Below, in pieces: positions 1 to 16,143 of a stretch of DNA of 62,802 nt. This DNA is from a virus. The notes beneath the pieces were generated by a model. The model saw only the letters and a list, made by a program, of their open reading frames with translations, was not told where the DNA came from and ran no database searches. A program made the translations under genes and the position numbers. The stretch spans positions 1 to 62,802 of the IMG/VR virus record IMGVR_UViG_3300034520_000265. The stretch is one strand, 5' to 3'. Each line of letters opens with the position of its first letter. Within the stretch, counting starts at the first letter, position 1.

Positions 1-924
1 AAAGGATGGCTTGCACCAAGTGTTCAATGGAAGGTTGATGCACACATCAGACTGGTTAATTTAATAGCCAAGATACTACCAGTTACTAAAGTTGTTGTTG
101 AAGTAGCACCATTTGATATACACAAGATAGTCAATCCAACTGTAGAAGGTACTAAATACCAAGAAGGACCACAAAAAGATTTCTGGGACGTTAGAGAATA
201 CTGCTTGTGGAGAGCAGGATATAAATCTGAACTGTCGGGTAAAAAAGGTGTATTAGAAGTACATCATATTGTTCCCAGAAGTCAAGGTGGAACAGATAAT
301 CCATCAAATTTGATAGTGTTAACCGTTGAGGAACACAAAGCAATACATGAGGGGAAAATTAAGATTCCACGTAGTAAACTTAAAAAAGTTAAAATTCTCA
401 AAGATGCAAGTCATGTATCAACAATAGGATGGTGTATAGTTAACACATTAAAAGGACGATATGACATCAATATAACTTATGGTAGTATTACAAAAGCAAA
501 AAGAGTAGAGATGGGATTAGAGAAGGCACATAGAAACGACGCATTTGTAATAGCAGGTGGTAACAAAAATATTAACAGAACGACTGAATGGTACTTTGGA
601 AAATTTTTTAGAAGACAAAACAGGTCATTACACAAAGCTAATCCAATCAAAGGGGGGATTAGACCATCGAATACTATAAAGGAAGTTAGAGGATTTAGAA
701 GATTCGACAAAGTGAGATATAAAAATCAAATTGGCATAATCCACGGGTTAAGAAGTTCTGGATACTTCGATATACGTACATTGAGCGGAGAAAAAATTCA
801 CTCATCGGCAAAGTGGTCAAACCTAAAACTTTTAGAAAAAGCAAAAACACTAATGTTAGAAAGGAGGGAACAGCGCATTCCTCTCCATCTTAAAGAAGAT
901 GGAGTCTCCTGCGCTGGCTTATGA
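1..924 (+). CDS. iscB: IscB RNA-guided DNA nuclease, C-terminal part (5' end outside window)
   Basis: C-terminal 307 residues of an IscB (OMEGA-type) RNA-guided nuclease; the frame is open from base 1, so the N-terminus and the omega-RNA lie outside. In order: RuvC-II with Glu34 of VVVEVAPFD (codon numbering from base 1); HNH domain with HHIVPRSQGG at codons 88-97, the Asn of NPSNL and the His of EEHKAIH; RuvC-III KAHRNDAFVIA with His177 and Asp180; the RRQNRSLHKANPIKGG stretch; and a target-side domain with GLRSSGYFDIRTL. This order is the known IscB order, so a simple HNH homing enzyme is unlikely. The zinc cysteines usual in IscB HNH domains are absent (KSELSG in place of a CxxC, LTVEEH in place of LCxxCH). 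The gene ends inside a hairpin, and its TGA overlaps the next ATG. An internal ATG-like start at 205 would drop RuvC-II and is not the real start. Confidence 0.88.
   Translation, partial: KGWLAPSVQWKVDAHIRLVNLIAKILPVTKVVVEVAPFDIHKIVNPTVEGTKYQEGPQKDFWDVREYCLWRAGYKSELSGKKGVLEVHHIVPRSQGGTDNPSNLIVLTVEEHKAIHEGKIKIPRSKLKKVKILKDASHVSTIGWCIVNTLKGRYDINITYGSITKAKRVEMGLEKAHRNDAFVIAGGNKNINRTTEWYFGKFFRRQNRSLHKANPIKGGIRPSNTIKEVRGFRRFDKVRYKNQIGIIHGLRSSGYFDIRTLSGEKIHSSAKWSNLKLLEKAKTLMLERREQRIPLHLKEDGVSCAGL
871..916 (+). other. Imperfect hairpin at the 3' end of iscB
   Basis: CAGCGCA (871-877) pairs with TGCGCTG (910-916), and CTCCATCTT (883-891) pairs with AAGATGGAG (896-904) around an AAAG loop, leaving a 5x5 internal loop. 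It encodes the last IscB residues. IS200/IS605-type elements, which often carry IscB or TnpB, end in such subterminal hairpins, so this may be the right end of the element; that is inference. The GGAG at 901-904, the only Shine-Dalgarno-like sequence before the next gene, lies in the 3' arm, so translation through iscB could be needed to open it. Confidence 0.7.
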
Positions 925-3353
925 TGATTGAACGTGTATTTGGACCGTATCCACGAGTTGATGGTGTAGGATATGTCATTGATTTTAAAGAGTTAGTTAA
1001 TGCAAATATTTCTGTTCGAATTTGGAATGAAACTAATCAAGATTTTACCGATATAGAAACGAAAAACATTAATTTATATTTAAAAGGATATCAGATTATA
1101 GTTATCTACGAAGGAATGAGCGTATATGATTCATTAAGACTTCAAGCTTCAAAGATATACGACAAAACAACAACATATTCAGATGGCACTAAAAAAGTGA
1201 GAACATATGCAGTTATTTATGTAGAAACTGGTTTAGAATATGAAACAGCAGATAAACGTTTTAGATTTAGTTCAAGTGGTAGTACAACAATTCGTGCTCC
1301 ATATCCAAATAAAGTCGCATTGGAATTTTGGTTAAAAACAGTTACTTATGATAAAAATGGCAATATAGTTAATGAAGAGTATACACAAAAACTTCCAGTA
1401 CCGTGGGATTATCCTAAAACAATCACTACTCCTTCAACTATGTATGGCTATTTCTGGGAATTTCCTGTTAAGGCATATTCAGTTGATTGTTATGGTAATA
1501 ATTCATATACAGAAGTAGGGACCGTTTCATTGAAATCAGCTAATAACTTAATTGGTCAAGAAACTACAGTTGAATTCAACGGGAAGCAGTATACAATAGT
1601 TCCTACTAGTGCAACTTCGCCTGCAATTAACCTTGATGAAGAATACAAAGATCCAAATAATACATATCCAAATTTAAGGTATAATTATAAGTTTGTAATA
1701 AAGGATTTATTAGATAATGTAATTGATGAGATTGAAACCACACCAAATGAAACAACGGATTTAATTGTTCCAGCTCATACTATTGAAGTTGATTTACCTC
1801 ATTTCCCAAAACAGACATTTTATATACAAGATGCAACTCTAAATAAAAATTACTGTATAACTCAAAATATATCTAAATTTGAACTTACTATACCACATAA
1901 AACAAATCAGTTAAATACAGAAGTTGCACACAGACACGTCAAAGACATAAATATAAACAGTGATGTAACGTTCGAATTTAAACATGCTAATTCACTTAAA
2001 TCAGCTCGATTAATTTATTACGGACAAAGGTATACATATGAATTTCCTATTTATAAATTTGAACTAAGCGAAGATGATCTCAAAGTTACATCGGCGTATA
2101 AAGCACCAATATTATTGATTGGAGAAGTTAATTACGTAAGAGATGGTAAAGACGCTTATGTAACTGATATAGATACACAAGCGAATATTTTAAATGAATA
2201 CGAAGTAATTATGACTGTACCACTTGAATATGAACTTCCAACTGAAAAGAAGGTTGTTTTAGTTCCTGTTAATATTAATAAAGATATTCAAATGTATACA
2301 GATAAAGAACCAGATATGCCTTATATAGATATTACCGAATGGCTTAAAAAAAGAAATTTGATGTTCGACTATGCAGTTATTGTACCAAATTTAATTGAAA
2401 TTGCTCCAAGTGAGTTAGATCTTGTTAAGGTGCATAACACAAAATTGATTTATAAAGACGGTTTCTATTATCCAGAATTTAGTAGAGCTAAATTATATGT
2501 AATGTATAAATCTTATCCGCTGAGAAATAGTATGATTTACAGACAGCCGTTTATGATTTCTGAACCAAAGCAAATAAAGCAATTTTTTGGACTTAGTACA
2601 CCAAAGAATCCACTTGCTTATGCAGCTAATTATATTTTATCTAAAACTAATCAACCTATTTTAGTTTGGGGATTATTAGATCAAACAGCAGATGATATTT
2701 ATAACACACTAGAAAACCTTAAAGGGTTAGAATACGCATATATTCTCAAAGATGGTTCGGAACCGTTAATTCACAATTTACTTGATAAATACATTAATAT
2801 AAACAACAAACCTTATACGTTAGTTGTCTCTTCTTCGAATGAAAATGTAATTAATAAGTATAATTCTGATTCAATTGTGTATCTTATAGGTATGCACAAA
2901 GATGGATATAATTACCTTTTAGGCTGTGATTATATTATTGAAGGAAAAAACAGCTTGAAAGAGGTTGTAGCTATGGACAAAATGAGCAATTTAAGTGATT
3001 ATAGAACGGCTATTAATCTTTCAAATCAAGGTTTTATATGTAAATACAACGATGAAATACTCAATCCGAGTACATTAAATATGAAAAACGGCTTAAAACT
3101 TGAACGTGAAAAGCGATTATTTAATAAAATTGCAAATGAACTCTACCAAATACCAAATAAGGTTTATACTATTGATGAGTACATATATACTCTTAAACAA
3201 ATTTTGGATAATTATAAATCACAAAAATTGATTTATGATTATTCTATAAATGTTCTTGAGAAAGTACAATTAGAATATACGGTTGTTGTAAGCATAAAAT
3301 TCAACTTATTAAGAGAAGCGAGAGTAGTACTTAGAGGTGGTTTAGTTGGCTAA
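921..3353 (+). CDS. Second tail-sheath-like protein with N-terminal extension
   Basis: An 810-residue virion protein whose C-terminal half resembles a contractile tail sheath. It shares YIDITEWLK exactly with the true sheath at 60482-62176. It then follows the sheath plan: an ISEPKQIKQFFG segment, a NPLAYAANYIL helix, ILVWGLL, a final LEREKRLFNKIANEL helix, and a last beta strand VVVSIKFNLL. The first roughly 480 residues are beta-rich and have no counterpart in the sheath. It starts four bases before the iscB stop and is followed by baseplate genes. It may be a sheath paralogue at the baseplate or collar. The sheath relationship is by eye; the exact role is unknown. Confidence 0.6.
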   Translation: MMIERVFGPYPRVDGVGYVIDFKELVNANISVRIWNETNQDFTDIETKNINLYLKGYQIIVIYEGMSVYDSLRLQASKIYDKTTTYSDGTKKVRTYAVIYVETGLEYETADKRFRFSSSGSTTIRAPYPNKVALEFWLKTVTYDKNGNIVNEEYTQKLPVPWDYPKTITTPSTMYGYFWEFPVKAYSVDCYGNNSYTEVGTVSLKSANNLIGQETTVEFNGKQYTIVPTSATSPAINLDEEYKDPNNTYPNLRYNYKFVIKDLLDNVIDEIETTPNETTDLIVPAHTIEVDLPHFPKQTFYIQDATLNKNYCITQNISKFELTIPHKTNQLNTEVAHRHVKDININSDVTFEFKHANSLKSARLIYYGQRYTYEFPIYKFELSEDDLKVTSAYKAPILLIGEVNYVRDGKDAYVTDIDTQANILNEYEVIMTVPLEYELPTEKKVVLVPVNINKDIQMYTDKEPDMPYIDITEWLKKRNLMFDYAVIVPNLIEIAPSELDLVKVHNTKLIYKDGFYYPEFSRAKLYVMYKSYPLRNSMIYRQPFMISEPKQIKQFFGLSTPKNPLAYAANYILSKTNQPILVWGLLDQTADDIYNTLENLKGLEYAYILKDGSEPLIHNLLDKYININNKPYTLVVSSSNENVINKYNSDSIVYLIGMHKDGYNYLLGCDYIIEGKNSLKEVVAMDKMSNLSDYRTAINLSNQGFICKYNDEILNPSTLNMKNGLKLEREKRLFNKIANELYQIPNKVYTIDEYIYTLKQILDNYKSQKLIYDYSINVLEKVQLEYTVVVSIKFNLLREARVVLRGGLVG

Positions 3354-3864
3354 TGCCTATTTACCTATGTCTTATGACTTTAAATATATATCTGTTAATC
3401 CTACTCGTTTTCCAATTGAATATATTTTACGCTTTAATACTCAAACAGAAGAGTATAAATTTTATGATATACCGGCATTAGCGGGGCAAGATATTACAGG
3501 GCGAGCATTGATTTATTATCCTAATCCTTCTCTTGCTTTAAATTTAATGAATAAACGTCTAATTGCGGCTGGGATAGGCAAGTATAAACCAGCTAAACCG
3601 ATGTTTATTGTAGTTAACACACGCATTTCCAATCAAAAATTACTTAATTTTAATCGTATGTTAGCTGAAATAGATATAAAATCAATTGATTTAAAAACAT
3701 TTAATTTGCTTTGGAATTCATATTTTCATGAATTATTACCTCAAACACAGTTAACTGTGATCTATAACAATCAAGATAGCAGAAATATTATTTCACAAAC
3801 AACGAATATTCAAGTAACAGAAGGATATATTTTACAAGTTATACTACAAAGCATGGTCTTTTAA
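3346..3864 (+). CDS. Hypothetical virion protein (172 aa)
   Basis: Starts at TTG after AGAGGTGG and overlaps the end of the sheath-like gene by 8 nt, which suggests translational coupling. No recognised family. It is a mixed alpha/beta protein without signal peptide or membrane segment. Its place between the sheath-like protein and the spike in one operon suggests a tail or baseplate part. Confidence 0.7.
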   Translation: MANAYLPMSYDFKYISVNPTRFPIEYILRFNTQTEEYKFYDIPALAGQDITGRALIYYPNPSLALNLMNKRLIAAGIGKYKPAKPMFIVVNTRISNQKLLNFNRMLAEIDIKSIDLKTFNLLWNSYFHELLPQTQLTVIYNNQDSRNIISQTTNIQVTEGYILQVILQSMVF

Positions 3865-3877
3865 GGGGATGGTAAAG

Positions 3878-5227
3878 ATGATAGATGTATATGAAGATAC
3901 GTACGGTTATCCAGATGAAGAACCATCTCAAAAGAGTAATATAATTGATAATATAGAAGCGTGGTTAGATACAGTTGTATTTGATAATACGCTTGAAGTA
4001 TTAATGAATGACTATCACAGAGGGCAATTAACCTTTGAATGGCTGGAAAATTTTATGCTTCCTGTGATTAGTACTACAATGAAAGCTATGTATTTAGGTG
4101 GTTTAATAGAAACATTAACGAATGCATTGGGACTTGCTTATCCCAAAGATACTATTTCTAATGATATTAAATCTGCATTTGCTAAAACAAACCGTATAAC
4201 ACTTACAAGAAAAGGATTAATTGCCTTTCCAGATAGATTAGTTCATGCAATGTCAAAAGCAGTTAAATCGGTAGAAGCAAATTTGCGGTTAGTTTATGCT
4301 GTTTTTGGTGTTGATCCAGATAATCCAGATACACCAAATTTATGGGATATGCTTGGTTCTGCAGCTAATTTTACCGCTTCTATGATTATTACAGAACCAT
4401 ATTATATATTTTTGGATAGTAATAGAGCTTTTTATGAGCAAAATAAGGAGGAATTATCGAAACAATTAGTAAAAGTTCGTATGCTTCGTAATGAATTAAC
4501 CGCTTGTGAGCTTTTAAAAAAAGAAAAAGTACCGTATACAAAGTATTATAGCTGTAGAATGCAGTATTTAGTGCATAATTTAAAGAAAGAAATAAAGAAT
4601 ATTTTAAATGATTTATCTGCTGATCCGCTTGTCTTAATGTTTACACTCATATTTGGCCTGTTCGATTTTATTAATTTGCTCTTTTTAAACCCAAAAACAC
4701 GTGTTTTTCCACTTCTAACTGATGTAAATGCATGGTTAGAACGTATAGATAACGCTTTAGATGCATTAAGTGGTATTGAAAAAGGCTTTGTTGAATGGTT
4801 GAAATCACCATATAATCCATTTGCTCCCGTTGTTTTGTGGTATGAAAATAATATTGCTTATAATATTAATGCATTTAATAGTACTGTTTCAGATCTTTCC
4901 GCTAAATTAGAGAATATCTTTAGCTCTCTTATAACTGAAGGACAATTTCCAGAGGAAAATACACTTAATTTCTTGGAAAATTACATTAAATTCTTAATTT
5001 CCTTGCTTGGAATAAAGGATAATTTTAAAGAAATAGAGCCTATTCCAGAGCTTTCTGCAGATACAAAAGGGTTAGAAGAAGGAAAATATGCAAATCAACC
5101 GGTAATTTTATCACCTGAAACTAAATCTCTTATAGCTAAACGCTCTAAATATTTTCAAAAAACGGAAGAAGGCGATGAAATCATCTCAAATATAGACTTT
5201 TCTCCTAAAAAATTAAGAGGATTTTAA
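3878..5227 (+). CDS. Hypothetical baseplate-region protein (449 aa)
   Basis: Product not recognised. An in-frame ATG at 3869 directly abuts the AAGGGG ribosome binding site (3863-3868), so the ATG at 3878, ten bases away, is the better start. Mostly helical, with a hydrophobic stretch near residues 250-270 (LMFTLIFGLFDFINLLFL) that could be a membrane segment or a buried helix. A long structural protein in the spike/baseplate operon; a tail or baseplate role is inferred from position only. Confidence 0.7.
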   Translation: MIDVYEDTYGYPDEEPSQKSNIIDNIEAWLDTVVFDNTLEVLMNDYHRGQLTFEWLENFMLPVISTTMKAMYLGGLIETLTNALGLAYPKDTISNDIKSAFAKTNRITLTRKGLIAFPDRLVHAMSKAVKSVEANLRLVYAVFGVDPDNPDTPNLWDMLGSAANFTASMIITEPYYIFLDSNRAFYEQNKEELSKQLVKVRMLRNELTACELLKKEKVPYTKYYSCRMQYLVHNLKKEIKNILNDLSADPLVLMFTLIFGLFDFINLLFLNPKTRVFPLLTDVNAWLERIDNALDALSGIEKGFVEWLKSPYNPFAPVVLWYENNIAYNINAFNSTVSDLSAKLENIFSSLITEGQFPEENTLNFLENYIKFLISLLGIKDNFKEIEPIPELSADTKGLEEGKYANQPVILSPETKSLIAKRSKYFQKTEEGDEIISNIDFSPKKLRGF

Positions 5228-5241
5228 TTGGAGGGGTGTGT

Positions 5242-5940
5242 ATGACCGCTTTAGATGAAATAAAACAACTGTTTTTAGAAGCATTAAAAGGATTCAAAAG
5301 TGATTATTTGAATGAAATATCTAAATTATCTGTTGAATCTATGCCTATTTACCATGAAGAAGACAAAAAATACGTCTCTCAAACCTTATATGATGATAGA
5401 TACATTAAAAATATTACTGAAACAACAATTGAATTACCACATAAGTGGTTTAATATAACAAAAATATCCAATGAAAAGGGGCAAAACTTAGAATTTCAAG
5501 TGAATAATAACGTAATTACTGTTCCTAAATCGGAAATATACATTTTAGAAGGCTTTTCTATTATAGAACCTTATTGGTTTGATATAATTTCACTCTTAAA
5601 ACTCAGTTTTTTTGATAAAATGCTTCAAAATGCATCTAATATAAGCGAAATTGAAGAGCTGATTATTCGAATTAAAGCATTTTTTGCACAAAGACGCTTT
5701 AGAGAACTCTCAAATAACAAATTATTTTATGAAAATATCATAAATTTAGCTCTTGGCTACCCTTTTATTATGTATTCAGGTACAATTGAGAATATAATTG
5801 ATAATACAGTAGATATAACGCTTACAATAGACGGTCAAAAACAAGTAGTTCCACGTTTATTTGCAGACAAATTACATTGGAATGTAAATGATACCGTTTA
5901 TTTTGGAGATAAAATATTTGATACGGTTGTAATAAGCTAA
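5242..5940 (+). CDS. Hypothetical baseplate-region protein (232 aa)
   Basis: Starts at ATG 5242, seven bases after GGAGGG; the in-frame GTG at 5236 touches that site and is unlikely. The C-terminal third is beta-rich and reads like a small OB- or SH3-like barrel (YSGTIENIIDNTVDITLTID, then VNDTVYFGDKIFD). It immediately precedes the spike gene, as small baseplate proteins often do. Function unknown. Confidence 0.68.
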   Translation: MTALDEIKQLFLEALKGFKSDYLNEISKLSVESMPIYHEEDKKYVSQTLYDDRYIKNITETTIELPHKWFNITKISNEKGQNLEFQVNNNVITVPKSEIYILEGFSIIEPYWFDIISLLKLSFFDKMLQNASNISEIEELIIRIKAFFAQRRFRELSNNKLFYENIINLALGYPFIMYSGTIENIIDNTVDITLTIDGQKQVVPRLFADKLHWNVNDTVYFGDKIFDTVVIS

Positions 5941-5950
5941 GAAAAGGTAG

Positions 5951-7126
5951 GTGTTTGGGCTAATGATTATCCCTCCAAGGTATTTACCAGAGCAAAATGG
6001 ATTAAAATTATTGAATTGTTATGTAAAAGATATAGATTCAAAGACATATACGATGAAATTAGAGTGTTCTGGACTGCAGCATGCTATTACAGCACCTATT
6101 CCTATGTTAAATAGTGCAAACGGAGTTGGTTTTACTGCTGTTCCAACTGTAGGACAGGCATTAAAGGTACTATTTGATGGGATAAATGTTGTTCCACTTC
6201 CTTTGTTCCCTATAGAAACACCATCAGATGGTTATAAAGGTATTAGACCCTCTAATCCTTCTCCTAAAGATCTATATATGATAGGTTGGCATGCGGGATA
6301 TATTGTAAAAGATTATAAATTAATTTCCTTTGTTACTAATGATGACGGTGAAAACTCTATTATAGAATTCGGAATAGATAAAAATACAAATTTAACCTAT
6401 ATTATAAACAAAACACGAGATTGGACATTAAAAGGTAAATATTACAGTTTTAATATAAAAGATGTTCCTGAATCATCAGATGCAACCTTTGAATTTAAAA
6501 CAAACAGTTTAAATATAACATATGAATCTAATCAAGGATTAAATCTTCAACTAACAGAGCCTGCAGTTCGTATAACTGTGGATAATAATAAATTGCTTTT
6601 AAGTAAAAATCAAGCGTATATTTCTATAGAAGACGATCAAATCATTTTAAAAGTAGGTAATTCACGAATAATCATAGATAGTGGTGGTAAAATGGAAATA
6701 AATGTGGATAAAATTGTAATTAATACAAATGAAGCAAAGATACAATCTAATAATATTGAACACAAGACATCAGATTTTTCTATTTCATCGTCAAATTATA
6801 AAGTTAATTCTAATATAATTACACAACAGGGCTCGAATATTAGTTTAGACGGTTCTAAAATAGACTTAGATAGTAGAATGACTACTATTAACGGTGATAT
6901 AACCGCATCTAATAATTTGAATGTATTAGGAAATGAAAATGTATTAGGTAATTTAACCGTAGCAAATATTCAAGTAGTTCTTATAACCGATTTAGAGCAA
7001 TTAAAAGGGAATGTAAATAATTCACTTCAGACATTAACTTCATCTTTAATAGCACATACACACGTTACAGCGGTAGGACCTTCTACACCGCCTTCTTCAC
7101 CTATTGTGTGCCCTATTATTCTTTAA
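5951..7126 (+). CDS. Central tail spike / baseplate V-like protein
   Basis: Probably the membrane-piercing spike under the tail tube (gpV / gp5 C-terminal type). Residues 15-110 look like an OB-fold. Residues 190-330 form a run of short alternating hydrophobic strands (QIILKVGNSRIIIDSGG, KIVINTNEAKIQS) typical of a trimeric beta-helix. The end carries HTHVTAVGPSTPPSSP, an HxH as used to bind iron at spike tips. Start is GTG 5951; ATG 5963 is an alternative with a longer spacing to AGGTAGG. The stop shares four bases with the convergent hub-like gene. Confidence 0.68.
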   Translation: MFGLMIIPPRYLPEQNGLKLLNCYVKDIDSKTYTMKLECSGLQHAITAPIPMLNSANGVGFTAVPTVGQALKVLFDGINVVPLPLFPIETPSDGYKGIRPSNPSPKDLYMIGWHAGYIVKDYKLISFVTNDDGENSIIEFGIDKNTNLTYIINKTRDWTLKGKYYSFNIKDVPESSDATFEFKTNSLNITYESNQGLNLQLTEPAVRITVDNNKLLLSKNQAYISIEDDQIILKVGNSRIIIDSGGKMEINVDKIVINTNEAKIQSNNIEHKTSDFSISSSNYKVNSNIITQQGSNISLDGSKIDLDSRMTTINGDITASNNLNVLGNENVLGNLTVANIQVVLITDLEQLKGNVNNSLQTLTSSLIAHTHVTAVGPSTPPSSPIVCPIIL

Positions 7127-8586
7127 TCTTCTTGAATTTGTAAGATTACAGTTTTGGGTTCTGTGGTAGGTAATTGCGGAGTTTTCCACGTTAAGCGTGG
7201 AAGATTCTCTATTTCTGATTCATCTTCTATAGGTTCTGCAGCTCCTATTGTAAGTGATGTAGTACATAAACCCGTTGCAGAATAATTATGTGAGACAGAA
7301 ATTAAATATCCTTTCATTATATTATATGTTCCTTCAAAAGCAATATATTTTCCTATGTATTGTTCTAAACCCGGTGTAAGGTCTATATTTATTGCATGTG
7401 TCTGCGATGATTGTAAAATACGTCTTCTACGCCATAAATTTCTATTCCTTGCAATTTGAACAGCAGAACTTAAAATATTATTTGCTTCATCTTCCGAATT
7501 TAAAAAGTTACTTGTTTCTCCATTTTTAAGCTTTTGATATTCGTATAATAATAAAGCAGATTGATATGTTAATACCTCTAAATCTAATATTGCTCCTTGC
7601 TCTAACTCAGGAATTTTTATTTTCTTTAATTGATCTTCTAATGACGTTAAATTAATTGAAATTGAATATCCTTCATCTCCTGTAGAAAGTAAAGGGAGTA
7701 TATGTCCACCAAAGATATAATTTAATTGAGCAGTTCCTTCATCTAAAACATCTTCTGTTGGAACAACAAAAGTTATAAATAAATTAGGTACATTATGCGA
7801 ATAATTAATTGATACATCAAATATTTTATTTCTTGGTATTAATAATTGAGCTTCTTTATTAAATTGGGCTAGAGTTCCTACCTTTAAATGATTCGGACCT
7901 ATACTTTTTAATTCAACCATAGCTAAACTTGATAATAATTGAATTAAACCATCTATTGTAGTTTGGGTAGCCATACCATAACCACCCATAATTAATTGAG
8001 CCATTTTTAAACCTTCTACATCACCAAATGTTATGTCGTTTTCTATTTTAATATCTGTTATTCCTAAGTGTTTAAATAAACTCTTAAATAACCCTTCCCC
8101 CGATTCTTTTGCATTTTGTAAAACTTCATATAGTAAACCACCAAACATAAATTCATTGTCACCATTGTTTATCTTTTCTTTTAATATCTTTACGTTATTA
8201 GCTAAAATCTTACTTAATATAAAATCTTGAATAAGAGTAGGAGAAAGAAAATCATTACTTGCAGCAGAAGCTACATTAAATGAAATAGGGGATATAATTG
8301 TCTGCTGTAGTTGCCTTGTAAGTTGATCTTGTATACTAAATCCTTCTGAATAATTAAATGCACTTCTTTGCAAAATTTGTTCACTCATTACCATTTGATA
8401 TTCTACATCATCAAAAATAAGAGTAACCGGACTAAAAGGCTTTAAATTTACTGCTTCTTGTCCGGGTGCTACCATAACATTACCTAATATATTCATTCCA
8501 TTAAATGAAATTGAAGCACTTTCTACCCAAAAATCTTTGTTTTCACCAGAAATACATTTACATTTATGATGAGAAATTTTAGGCAT
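7123..8586 (-). CDS. Baseplate hub-like protein (gpD/gp27-type candidate)
   Basis: 487 residues. The C-terminal part (about 405-450) reads LTPGLEQYIGKYIAFEG and then GYLISVSHNYSATGLCTTSL, the pattern of the last beta domain of D-type hub proteins, where a strand is followed by a VxHxY turn and a closing strand. The N-terminus has a Cys/His cluster HHKCKC. It faces the spike gene tail to tail, its natural partner. The middle is not recognised, so the hub call rests on C-terminal pattern and context. Confidence 0.42.
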   Translation of the reverse strand: MPKISHHKCKCISGENKDFWVESASISFNGMNILGNVMVAPGQEAVNLKPFSPVTLIFDDVEYQMVMSEQILQRSAFNYSEGFSIQDQLTRQLQQTIISPISFNVASAASNDFLSPTLIQDFILSKILANNVKILKEKINNGDNEFMFGGLLYEVLQNAKESGEGLFKSLFKHLGITDIKIENDITFGDVEGLKMAQLIMGGYGMATQTTIDGLIQLLSSLAMVELKSIGPNHLKVGTLAQFNKEAQLLIPRNKIFDVSINYSHNVPNLFITFVVPTEDVLDEGTAQLNYIFGGHILPLLSTGDEGYSISINLTSLEDQLKKIKIPELEQGAILDLEVLTYQSALLLYEYQKLKNGETSNFLNSEDEANNILSSAVQIARNRNLWRRRRILQSSQTHAINIDLTPGLEQYIGKYIAFEGTYNIMKGYLISVSHNYSATGLCTTSLTIGAAEPIEDESEIENLPRLTWKTPQLPTTEPKTVILQIQED

Positions 8587-15084: not shown

Positions 15085-16143
15085 GTGGATGCAATAACTA
15101 CAAAAACTATTTCTGAATCTCCATTAAAAGTCGAAAGACAAGCATCAATAGAATTAAATACTGAAGCCGCTGTAATAAAACATGCTAATTTAGAATTAAA
15201 AGTTGAAAGACAAGCATCAATAGAATTAAATACTAAAGTCGCTATAATAAAACAAGCTAATTTAGATAAAACTAAATTATTAATAAAAAATGTGCCAAAA
15301 TCATATATAGAAGTTGATTATTTAAAGGCTATTTTGTCACTTATGTATCATGATTATGAAAAAGCGGCAGAAATGTTTGCTCAATTATATCAAAAAGCAT
15401 ATATCCAAATAATTGACGGTAAATATGTTATTACCGAAGGATACGAAGATACGGTTTACGCTGCTTTTGAAGAAGTTTTCGTTCAATATTTATCGGAACC
15501 AATTTTTAAATTAGGTTTAGAAAAGCCTTTAATTAAAAGCTACGATTCAACTACTCATACAGCTTTATTGCAAATTATATTAGGAGCAGCAATAGAATAT
15601 AATCCTGAGCCACCTGAAATTCCTGGTACAGATTACACTAATGTTTACTTAAGGCGAAAAGAAAAGACATTAGATCGTGCTCCGATAACATTACACATAA
15701 CCAAAGACGCAGAACATCTACATCAACCTAAATCGTTAAATGCACAAGTTGCTCGACTACAAAAAAAGAATGTAACTCAATTACTACAAGCAGAAGTTAA
15801 TCAATCTTTTATAAAAACTGCACCAACATTAGGTGCTCATATTGTTTTAACTCAATCTAAATCTATATCATTAAATACTTATTCTAATTACGGCTTTTCA
15901 TCTGGAGCACAAACCTTATACGATAGAAATAACTTAGATCAGTTTCCTTATCATCAAAATTGGCTTAAAGCAGTTAAACCTTACCTAAAAAGTGAAGTTA
16001 TTCAAACAAATCTTACTACAAATTCATGTAATGCATTATATGCTTTAGATAGATCTCAACTAACATATCATACATGGTACCACGGCAGTCTTTATCCTTC
16101 ACTTTTATGGGAATTTAACACTCCCGAGGAGGTTAACGAATGA
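15085..16143 (+). CDS. Fibre-operon protein with N-terminal tandem repeat (352 aa)
   Basis: Starts at GTG seven bases after TAGGTGA. Residues 14-61 are two copies of a 24-residue unit (begins LKVERQASIELNT). The rest is helical, with a region around HITKDAEHLHQPKS and aromatic-rich C-terminus. No family recognised. Its position between fibres suggests a fibre connector, chaperone or adaptor. Confidence 0.65.
   Translation: MDAITTKTISESPLKVERQASIELNTEAAVIKHANLELKVERQASIELNTKVAIIKQANLDKTKLLIKNVPKSYIEVDYLKAILSLMYHDYEKAAEMFAQLYQKAYIQIIDGKYVITEGYEDTVYAAFEEVFVQYLSEPIFKLGLEKPLIKSYDSTTHTALLQIILGAAIEYNPEPPEIPGTDYTNVYLRRKEKTLDRAPITLHITKDAEHLHQPKSLNAQVARLQKKNVTQLLQAEVNQSFIKTAPTLGAHIVLTQSKSISLNTYSNYGFSSGAQTLYDRNNLDQFPYHQNWLKAVKPYLKSEVIQTNLTTNSCNALYALDRSQLTYHTWYHGSLYPSLLWEFNTPEEVNE
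15124..15267 (+). repeat. 72-bp tandem duplication
   Basis: Two direct copies, 15124-15195 and 15196-15267, each beginning TTAAAAGT and nearly identical. They keep the reading frame and double a 24-residue segment, a likely recent slippage or recombination product. Confidence 0.9.

What the first reader, a model, noticed from the sequence alone, without database searches (positions are those of the whole stretch)
1..924. IscB RNA-guided nuclease inside a phage tail operon
Seen: RuvC-II, HNH, RuvC-III and target-side motifs in IscB order, fused by an ATGA overlap to a structural gene. Established: IscB proteins are guided by an omega-RNA, usually encoded next to the gene, and are mostly found in IS200/IS605-type elements. 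Inference: here the nuclease may act as a homing device, or cut rival phage or host DNA, from within a late operon.
Basis: partly seen in the sequence, partly recalled or inferred. Interest (0 to 1): 0.82.

Follow-up and report, generated by a model that had tools for sequence, protein, structure and literature searches.

The report
Mobile RNA-guided nuclease element in phage
The window opens inside a gene for IscB, a small RNA-guided DNA cutter from the family that gave rise to Cas9; related copies show that it belongs to a short hopping DNA element that inserts just in front of the ATGA start of phage genes, which explains why it appears joined to the next gene.

Summary
Confirmed: window 1-924 is the 3' 307 codons of an iscB gene (NCBIfam guided_IscB above cut-off although the N-terminus is cut off; visible RuvC-II, HNH and RuvC-III residues present; dN/dS 0.17 against its nearest relative). 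Base 1 is the contig end, so RuvC-I, bridge helix and omega-RNA cannot be tested here. All three are in the closest relative (L002: 84% identity, intact 425 aa, HEARO/omega-RNA 177.5 bits upstream); HEARO RNA occurs in 74 of 75 further iscB-bearing viral contigs.

It is not a fixture of a tail operon but the right part of a roughly 1.5-kb HEARO-iscB element without tnpA. Near-identical copies sit before unrelated genes in other phages, and two natural element-free alleles were found (L122 for L003; L119, 99.8% identical to L002). The element ends at 923; the target is ATGA (924-927), the neighbour's start codon, which also completes the iscB stop codon. Across the family ATGA/ATGG follows the right end in 47/52 loci, and the guide position carries a ribosome-binding-like motif in 15/23 start-codon insertions.

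Phage IscB and NTGA motifs are already published: new member of a known kind. The systematic docking at start codons is the interesting part.

The parts
1..924 (+). iscB coding sequence, 3' 307 codons; 5' part (about 118 codons by comparison with L002) lies beyond the contig end
   Evidence: dN/dS 0.17 against L002
100..102 (+). RuvC-II catalytic glutamate (VVVEVAPFD)
   Evidence: invariant column in alignment of nine relatives
262..336 (+). HNH core: His88-His89, Asn103, His112
   Evidence: Pfam HNH 28.8 bits
529..540 (+). RuvC-III His177 and Asp180 (HRND)
   Evidence: and sequence
871..916 (+). right-end stem-loop of the element, also coding for the IscB C-terminus
   Evidence: folds at -16.1 kcal/mol as single-stranded DNA, z -4.55; same motif in four other viral contigs; only copy in the window
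923..924 (+). right boundary of the element (between these two bases); the iscB stop TGA 922-924 is two element bases plus the first target base
   Evidence: element-free allele L122 against L003; flanks of five copies
924..927 (+). ATGA: insertion target and presumed target-adjacent motif; also the native start codon of the next gene
   Evidence: ATGA/ATGG follows the right end in 47 of 52 loci (counts)
924..3353 (+). downstream phage gene (809 aa from the native start), no known family

Best explanation
Window 1-923 is the right part of a small non-autonomous IS200/IS605-type element (HEARO omega-RNA + iscB + right-end hairpin, about 1.5 kb, no transposase) inserted in a contractile-tailed phage immediately upstream of an ATGA that is the start codon of the next gene. 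Inferred mechanism: a Y1 TnpA supplied in trans moves the element into ATGA/ATGG sites; transcription through the left flank makes an omega-RNA whose 5' guide is the DNA just left of the insertion; IscB with this RNA cuts element-free alleles of the same site (guide followed by NTGA), the break is repaired from an occupied copy, and so the element is kept and spreads. The occupied site is spared because the guide match is there followed by GTCA, not NTGA. Because the target is a start codon, often with its ribosome-binding site at the guide position, the neighbour keeps its coding sequence, and in this lineage iscB ends in a stop completed by the target, a stop-start overlap that may keep the neighbour translated. 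Shown: family, right boundary, omega-RNA in relatives, target motif, presence/absence alleles. Inferred: cleavage, homing, mobilisation in trans, translational coupling, and the presence of the omega-RNA and N-terminus in this particular copy.
For: IscB by curated model. Intact relative with RuvC-I, bridge helix and HEARO RNA. HEARO in 74/75 related viral contigs and 0/14 control genomes. Right end shared by copies with unrelated flanks; last 258 nt identical between window and L005. Element-free alleles L119 and L122. Similarity of related copies largely confined to HEARO-iscB-right end. ATGR after the right end 47/52, against 31% by chance; opens an ORF of 50 or more codons in 57%, against 27%; ribosome-binding-like guide position 15/23, against 14%. 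Purifying selection.
Against: The 5' third of the gene, the omega-RNA and the left flank of this copy are not in the contig. No Y1 tnpA in the window, and only 5 of 40 related contigs have one above cut-off. The L002/L119 pair is not clean: 22 extra nt on the right side. No cleavage or homing was measured. Related loci are not independent, so the chance values are too favourable.
Confidence: 0.72

Rival explanations
1. A domesticated phage nuclease: IscB kept by the phage as a late-expressed weapon against rival phages or host DNA, without being mobile any more.
For: Strong purifying selection; position in a gene row on the same strand; stop-start overlap with the next gene.
Against: Near-identical copies with the same ends lie before unrelated genes in other phages; presence/absence alleles in otherwise almost identical phages; the overlap is produced by the insertion target. 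PADLOC gives no defence assignment beyond a weak HNH match.
Confidence: 0.1
2. A dead or dying copy: iscB without its N-terminus or omega-RNA, a remnant of an element.
For: The contig lacks the 5' part. Deleted derivatives exist: L006 (106 codons) and HEARO-only copies L132 and L134.
Against: All 307 visible codons are open, catalytic residues are kept, dN/dS is 0.17. The contig break is expected at a multi-copy repeat: G002, L005, L131 and L133 also end inside the element.
Confidence: 0.1
3. A chimeric assembly: the iscB end was joined to the phage contig through the repeated element and the upstream part may belong to another phage.
For: The contig starts inside a repeat, and the last 258 nt are identical in another phage contig.
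Against: The junction with the phage gene obeys the family rule exactly (right end, then ATGA start codon), so the right end at least is probably genuine; only the upstream part could be mis-joined.
Confidence: 0.05
4. An ordinary free-standing HNH homing endonuclease gene of a phage, protein-guided and without RNA.
For: PHROG and GenBank names of relatives are 'HNH endonuclease' or 'homing endonuclease'.
Against: RuvC halves and RRXRR region match IscB above the curated cut-off; HEARO RNA sits at a fixed place upstream in relatives.
Confidence: 0.02

Closest known systems
IscB / HEARO (OMEGA) systems, e.g. OgeuIscB and HEARO MG35-1 (PMC9755519)
   Same: Same domain order, HEARO RNA directly upstream, mostly without TnpA nearby, often on viral contigs (over 16% in that study)
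   Different: This clade lacks the zinc cysteines of the HNH domain; element ends, ATGA target and natural empty alleles in phages are described here from sequence; no activity was tested
IsrB nickases (PMC9581776)
   Same: Experimentally measured NTGA, NTG and NTGG target-adjacent motifs agree with the ATGA/ATGG found here from insertion sites
   Different: IsrB lacks the HNH domain, which is present here
IS200/IS605 transposons with TnpB
   Same: Hairpin at the right end, short fixed target on one side, nuclease that presumably enforces retention
   Different: IscB in place of TnpB, guide taken from the left flank and motif on the right, no tnpA in the element
IscB-like / HEARO loci of Staphylococcus Herelleviridae phages (PMC13346280; GenBank hits)
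   Same: HEARO RNA reported in the phages of that paper and an IscB-like gene in such phages
   Different: Only about 27% identical protein; insertion site not examined here

Membership tests
IscB (NCBIfam NF040563) | Score above the curated cut-off | tested here: met
   184.8 bits against 175 for the truncated window protein; 361.5 for the intact relative L002
IscB (NCBIfam NF040563) | RuvC-II, HNH and RuvC-III in order with catalytic residues | tested here: met
   sequence
IscB (NCBIfam NF040563) | PLMP domain, RuvC-I and arginine-rich bridge helix | not testable with these tools
   Upstream of base 1; present in the 84%-identical relative L002
IscB (NCBIfam NF040563) | omega-RNA (HEARO, RF02033) directly upstream | not testable with these tools
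   Upstream of base 1; 177.5 bits in L002, found in 74 of 75 related viral contigs
IscB (NCBIfam NF040563) | RNA-guided DNA cleavage | not testable with these tools
   Needs a cleavage assay
IS200/IS605-type element | Stem-loop at the end and a short fixed target on one side | tested here: met
   Right-end fold z -4.55; ATGR in 47/52; right boundary from L122
IS200/IS605-type element | Y1 TnpA transposase in the element | tested here: not met
   None in the window; none in related elements. Hence filed only as non-autonomous and IS200/IS605-like
IS200/IS605-type element | Clean insertion without target duplication or loss | tested here: inconclusive
   L003/L122: right junction clean, left side unseen. 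L002/L119: left junction at the HEARO start, 22 extra nt on the right

The most novel reading that the evidence does not exclude
HEARO-iscB elements are a class of start-codon-docking, RNA-guided selfish elements: the motif is the start codon (ATGA/ATGG), the guide is the target gene's own ribosome-binding region, and in some lineages the iscB stop codon is completed by the target so that the displaced gene stays translationally coupled. Guides that resemble ribosome-binding sites could also favour jumps to new gene starts.
Probability: 0.35. Interest if true: 0.72.

Novelty: new member of a known kind. Interest (0 to 1): 0.5.

Why it matters
IscB is the family from which Cas9 descends, and its natural role is still largely inferred. 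Paired occupied and empty alleles in phages, with guide and motif readable from the sequence, make the retention/homing model directly testable. A preference for start codons would help explain why such elements are tolerated in compact phage genomes, and it gives a genome-derived target motif for this IscB subfamily.

Tried and rejected
The 5' part of iscB is not at the other end of the contig. Rfam on the window found nothing. No close relative of the neighbour gene was found in viral contigs or phage records, so the empty site of this very copy could not be found. Single-sequence structure predictions of window 921-3350 and 5951-7123 were too poor to use (pLDDT 36 and 38). A search around phage contig L077 and searches with Finegoldia and Cetobacterium plasmids gave no element-free relative. 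A search among Anoxybacillus relatives could not be run for lack of a suitable handle. A defence-system reading was rejected: PADLOC gave only a weak HNH match. Kapitonov 2016, Altae-Tran 2021 and Weinberg 2009 were not held; I recall, unverified, that the last already noted ATGA/GTGA at HEARO 3' ends, so the bare motif may not be new.

Full report
Observation. The window is one whole viral contig and its first base lies inside a gene. The frame 1-924 is open and is IscB by curated model (184.8 bits against a cut-off of 175), by Pfam RRXRR and HNH and by solved structures. The catalytic residues that can be seen are in place. The zinc cysteines of the HNH domain found in most aligned relatives are missing, as they also are in L002. 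Between the window and L002 dS is 0.55 and dN 0.09 (ratio 0.17), so the protein is under purifying selection.

The missing 5' part. The other contig end does not hold it. The closest relative, L002, has an intact 425-aa IscB with PLMP motif, RuvC-I (TVGIDIGSKVVGIS) and arginine-rich bridge helix, and a HEARO RNA (RF02033, 177.5 bits, E 7e-39) at 4658-4871, ending 45 nt before the start codon. A profile search gave 79 iscB loci in viral contigs. HEARO was found in 74 of 75 contigs tested, 70 above Rfam's cut-off, and in none of 14 control genomes. For this copy the N-terminus and the RNA are therefore expected, not seen.

It is a mobile element. The right end (GGGAACAGCGCATTCCTCTCCAYCTT...) occurs in four other viral contigs, each time followed by different DNA. 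The last 258 nt are identical between the window and L005, and nothing else is shared between these contigs; the window phage has a contractile-tail sheath, while L005 has a Mu-F-like minor-head gene. Among the wider relatives, the similarity of copies is largely confined to a stretch from about 270 nt upstream to about 60 nt downstream of iscB, which leaves no room for a transposase. No Y1 transposase lies in the window or inside the related elements. Contig G002 carries two Y1 genes and a tnpB elsewhere and could supply TnpA in trans (inference).

Empty sites. L119 is 99.8% identical to L002 over 4657 + 1899 nt but lacks the element. The same phage type is occupied in three metagenomes (L002, L131, L133) and empty in one. 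L122 matches L003 at 100% from the ATGA onward over 867 nt. There the empty site is the junction of an intact portal gene (Pfam 248.6 bits) and the minor-head gene...GGAGGAATTGGA|ATGAAACG..., a native stop-start overlap. In L003 the element tail ...GCTGGCTTATG abuts the same ATGAAACG; its left flank is not in the contig. By the identical tail, the right boundary of the window copy lies between 923 and 924: the neighbour's native start is 924, the ATG at 921 belongs to the element, and the iscB stop TGA is two element bases plus the first target base.

Rule across the family. A right-end hairpin was recognised in 52 of about 80 loci scanned. In 47 of these an ATGA (40) or ATGG (7) follows, mostly 11-18 nt after the hairpin, against 31% by chance (binomial 6e-19); it opens an ORF of at least 50 codons in 57%, against 27% for chance ATGR sites. 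Where it does so and the left end is known, the 17 nt left of the HEARO RNA, which is the guide position, contain a ribosome-binding-like 4-mer in 15 of 23 loci, against 14% background (3e-8). In isolate plasmids the annotated CDS begins exactly after the right end in three of four cases (thioredoxin family protein, hypothetical protein, metallophosphoesterase). The iscB stop lies within a few bases of the ATGR in 12 of 44 loci. These loci are related, so the binomial values overstate independence, and loci without a recognised hairpin were left out.

Mechanism. Shown: family, omega-RNA in relatives, right boundary, target motif and presence/absence alleles. Inferred: TnpA in trans moves the element to ATGR; the guide is copied from the left flank; IscB cuts element-free alleles and repair copies the element in. 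The L119 site offers the L002 guide followed by CTGA, and NTGA was measured as a motif for the relative IsrB (PMC9581776). After insertion the guide match is followed by GTCA, so the occupied site should be spared. Docking at a start codon spares the neighbour's coding sequence, and the stop-start overlap may keep it translated.

Unexplained. Between the right end of L002 and the flank shared with L119 lie 22 extra nt (ATGAAAAAGATTAAAGATCCAA), followed by another ATGA. L119 reads as one uninterrupted gene across the site, whereas L002 splits it. Use of a second ATGA as right cleavage site in an earlier excision, co-transfer of donor flank, or a deletion in L119 are all possible and were not resolved.

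Known or new. Phage-borne HEARO/IscB is published (over 16% of HEARO fragments viral or prophage-derived, PMC9755519), as are HEARO RNAs in Staphylococcus phages (PMC13346280). NTGA motifs are published for IsrB. What I did not find in the papers held is the statement that the motif is the start codon and the guide region its ribosome-binding site, or natural empty/occupied phage pairs. I recall that the first HEARO description mentioned ATGA/GTGA ends; it was not available to check.

Noticed in passing
L006:1705-2336; L134 (reverse strand) from 2558; L132 (reverse strand) from 6340: Deleted derivatives of the element: HEARO RNA plus right end with iscB cut to 106 codons (L006) or to a few codons (L132, L134), like miniature elements that would depend on proteins supplied in trans.
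   Followed up: partly
L002:6195-6216 against L119:4846: 22 nt present in the occupied allele but not in the otherwise nearly identical empty allele, followed by a second ATGA; the empty allele reads as one continuous gene.
   Followed up: partly
contig G002: 95860-97900 (L032:2360-4382): Two Y1 transposase genes followed by a tnpB in the same phage contig that carries a copy of the iscB element; possible source of TnpA in trans.
   Followed up: partly
L006:5235-5902: Second HEARO-like RNA (73 bits, below Rfam's cut-off) followed by a right-end-like hairpin with an unrelated ORF between them.
   Followed up: no
window 15123-15266: Tandem duplication of a 72-bp unit (93% match) inside the 352-aa ORF at 15085-16143.
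   Followed up: no
window 921-8586: The + strand ORFs 921-7126 and the - strand ORF 7123-8586 next to the element match no PHROG or Pfam family although they are long; the phage is far from any described one.
   Followed up: partly
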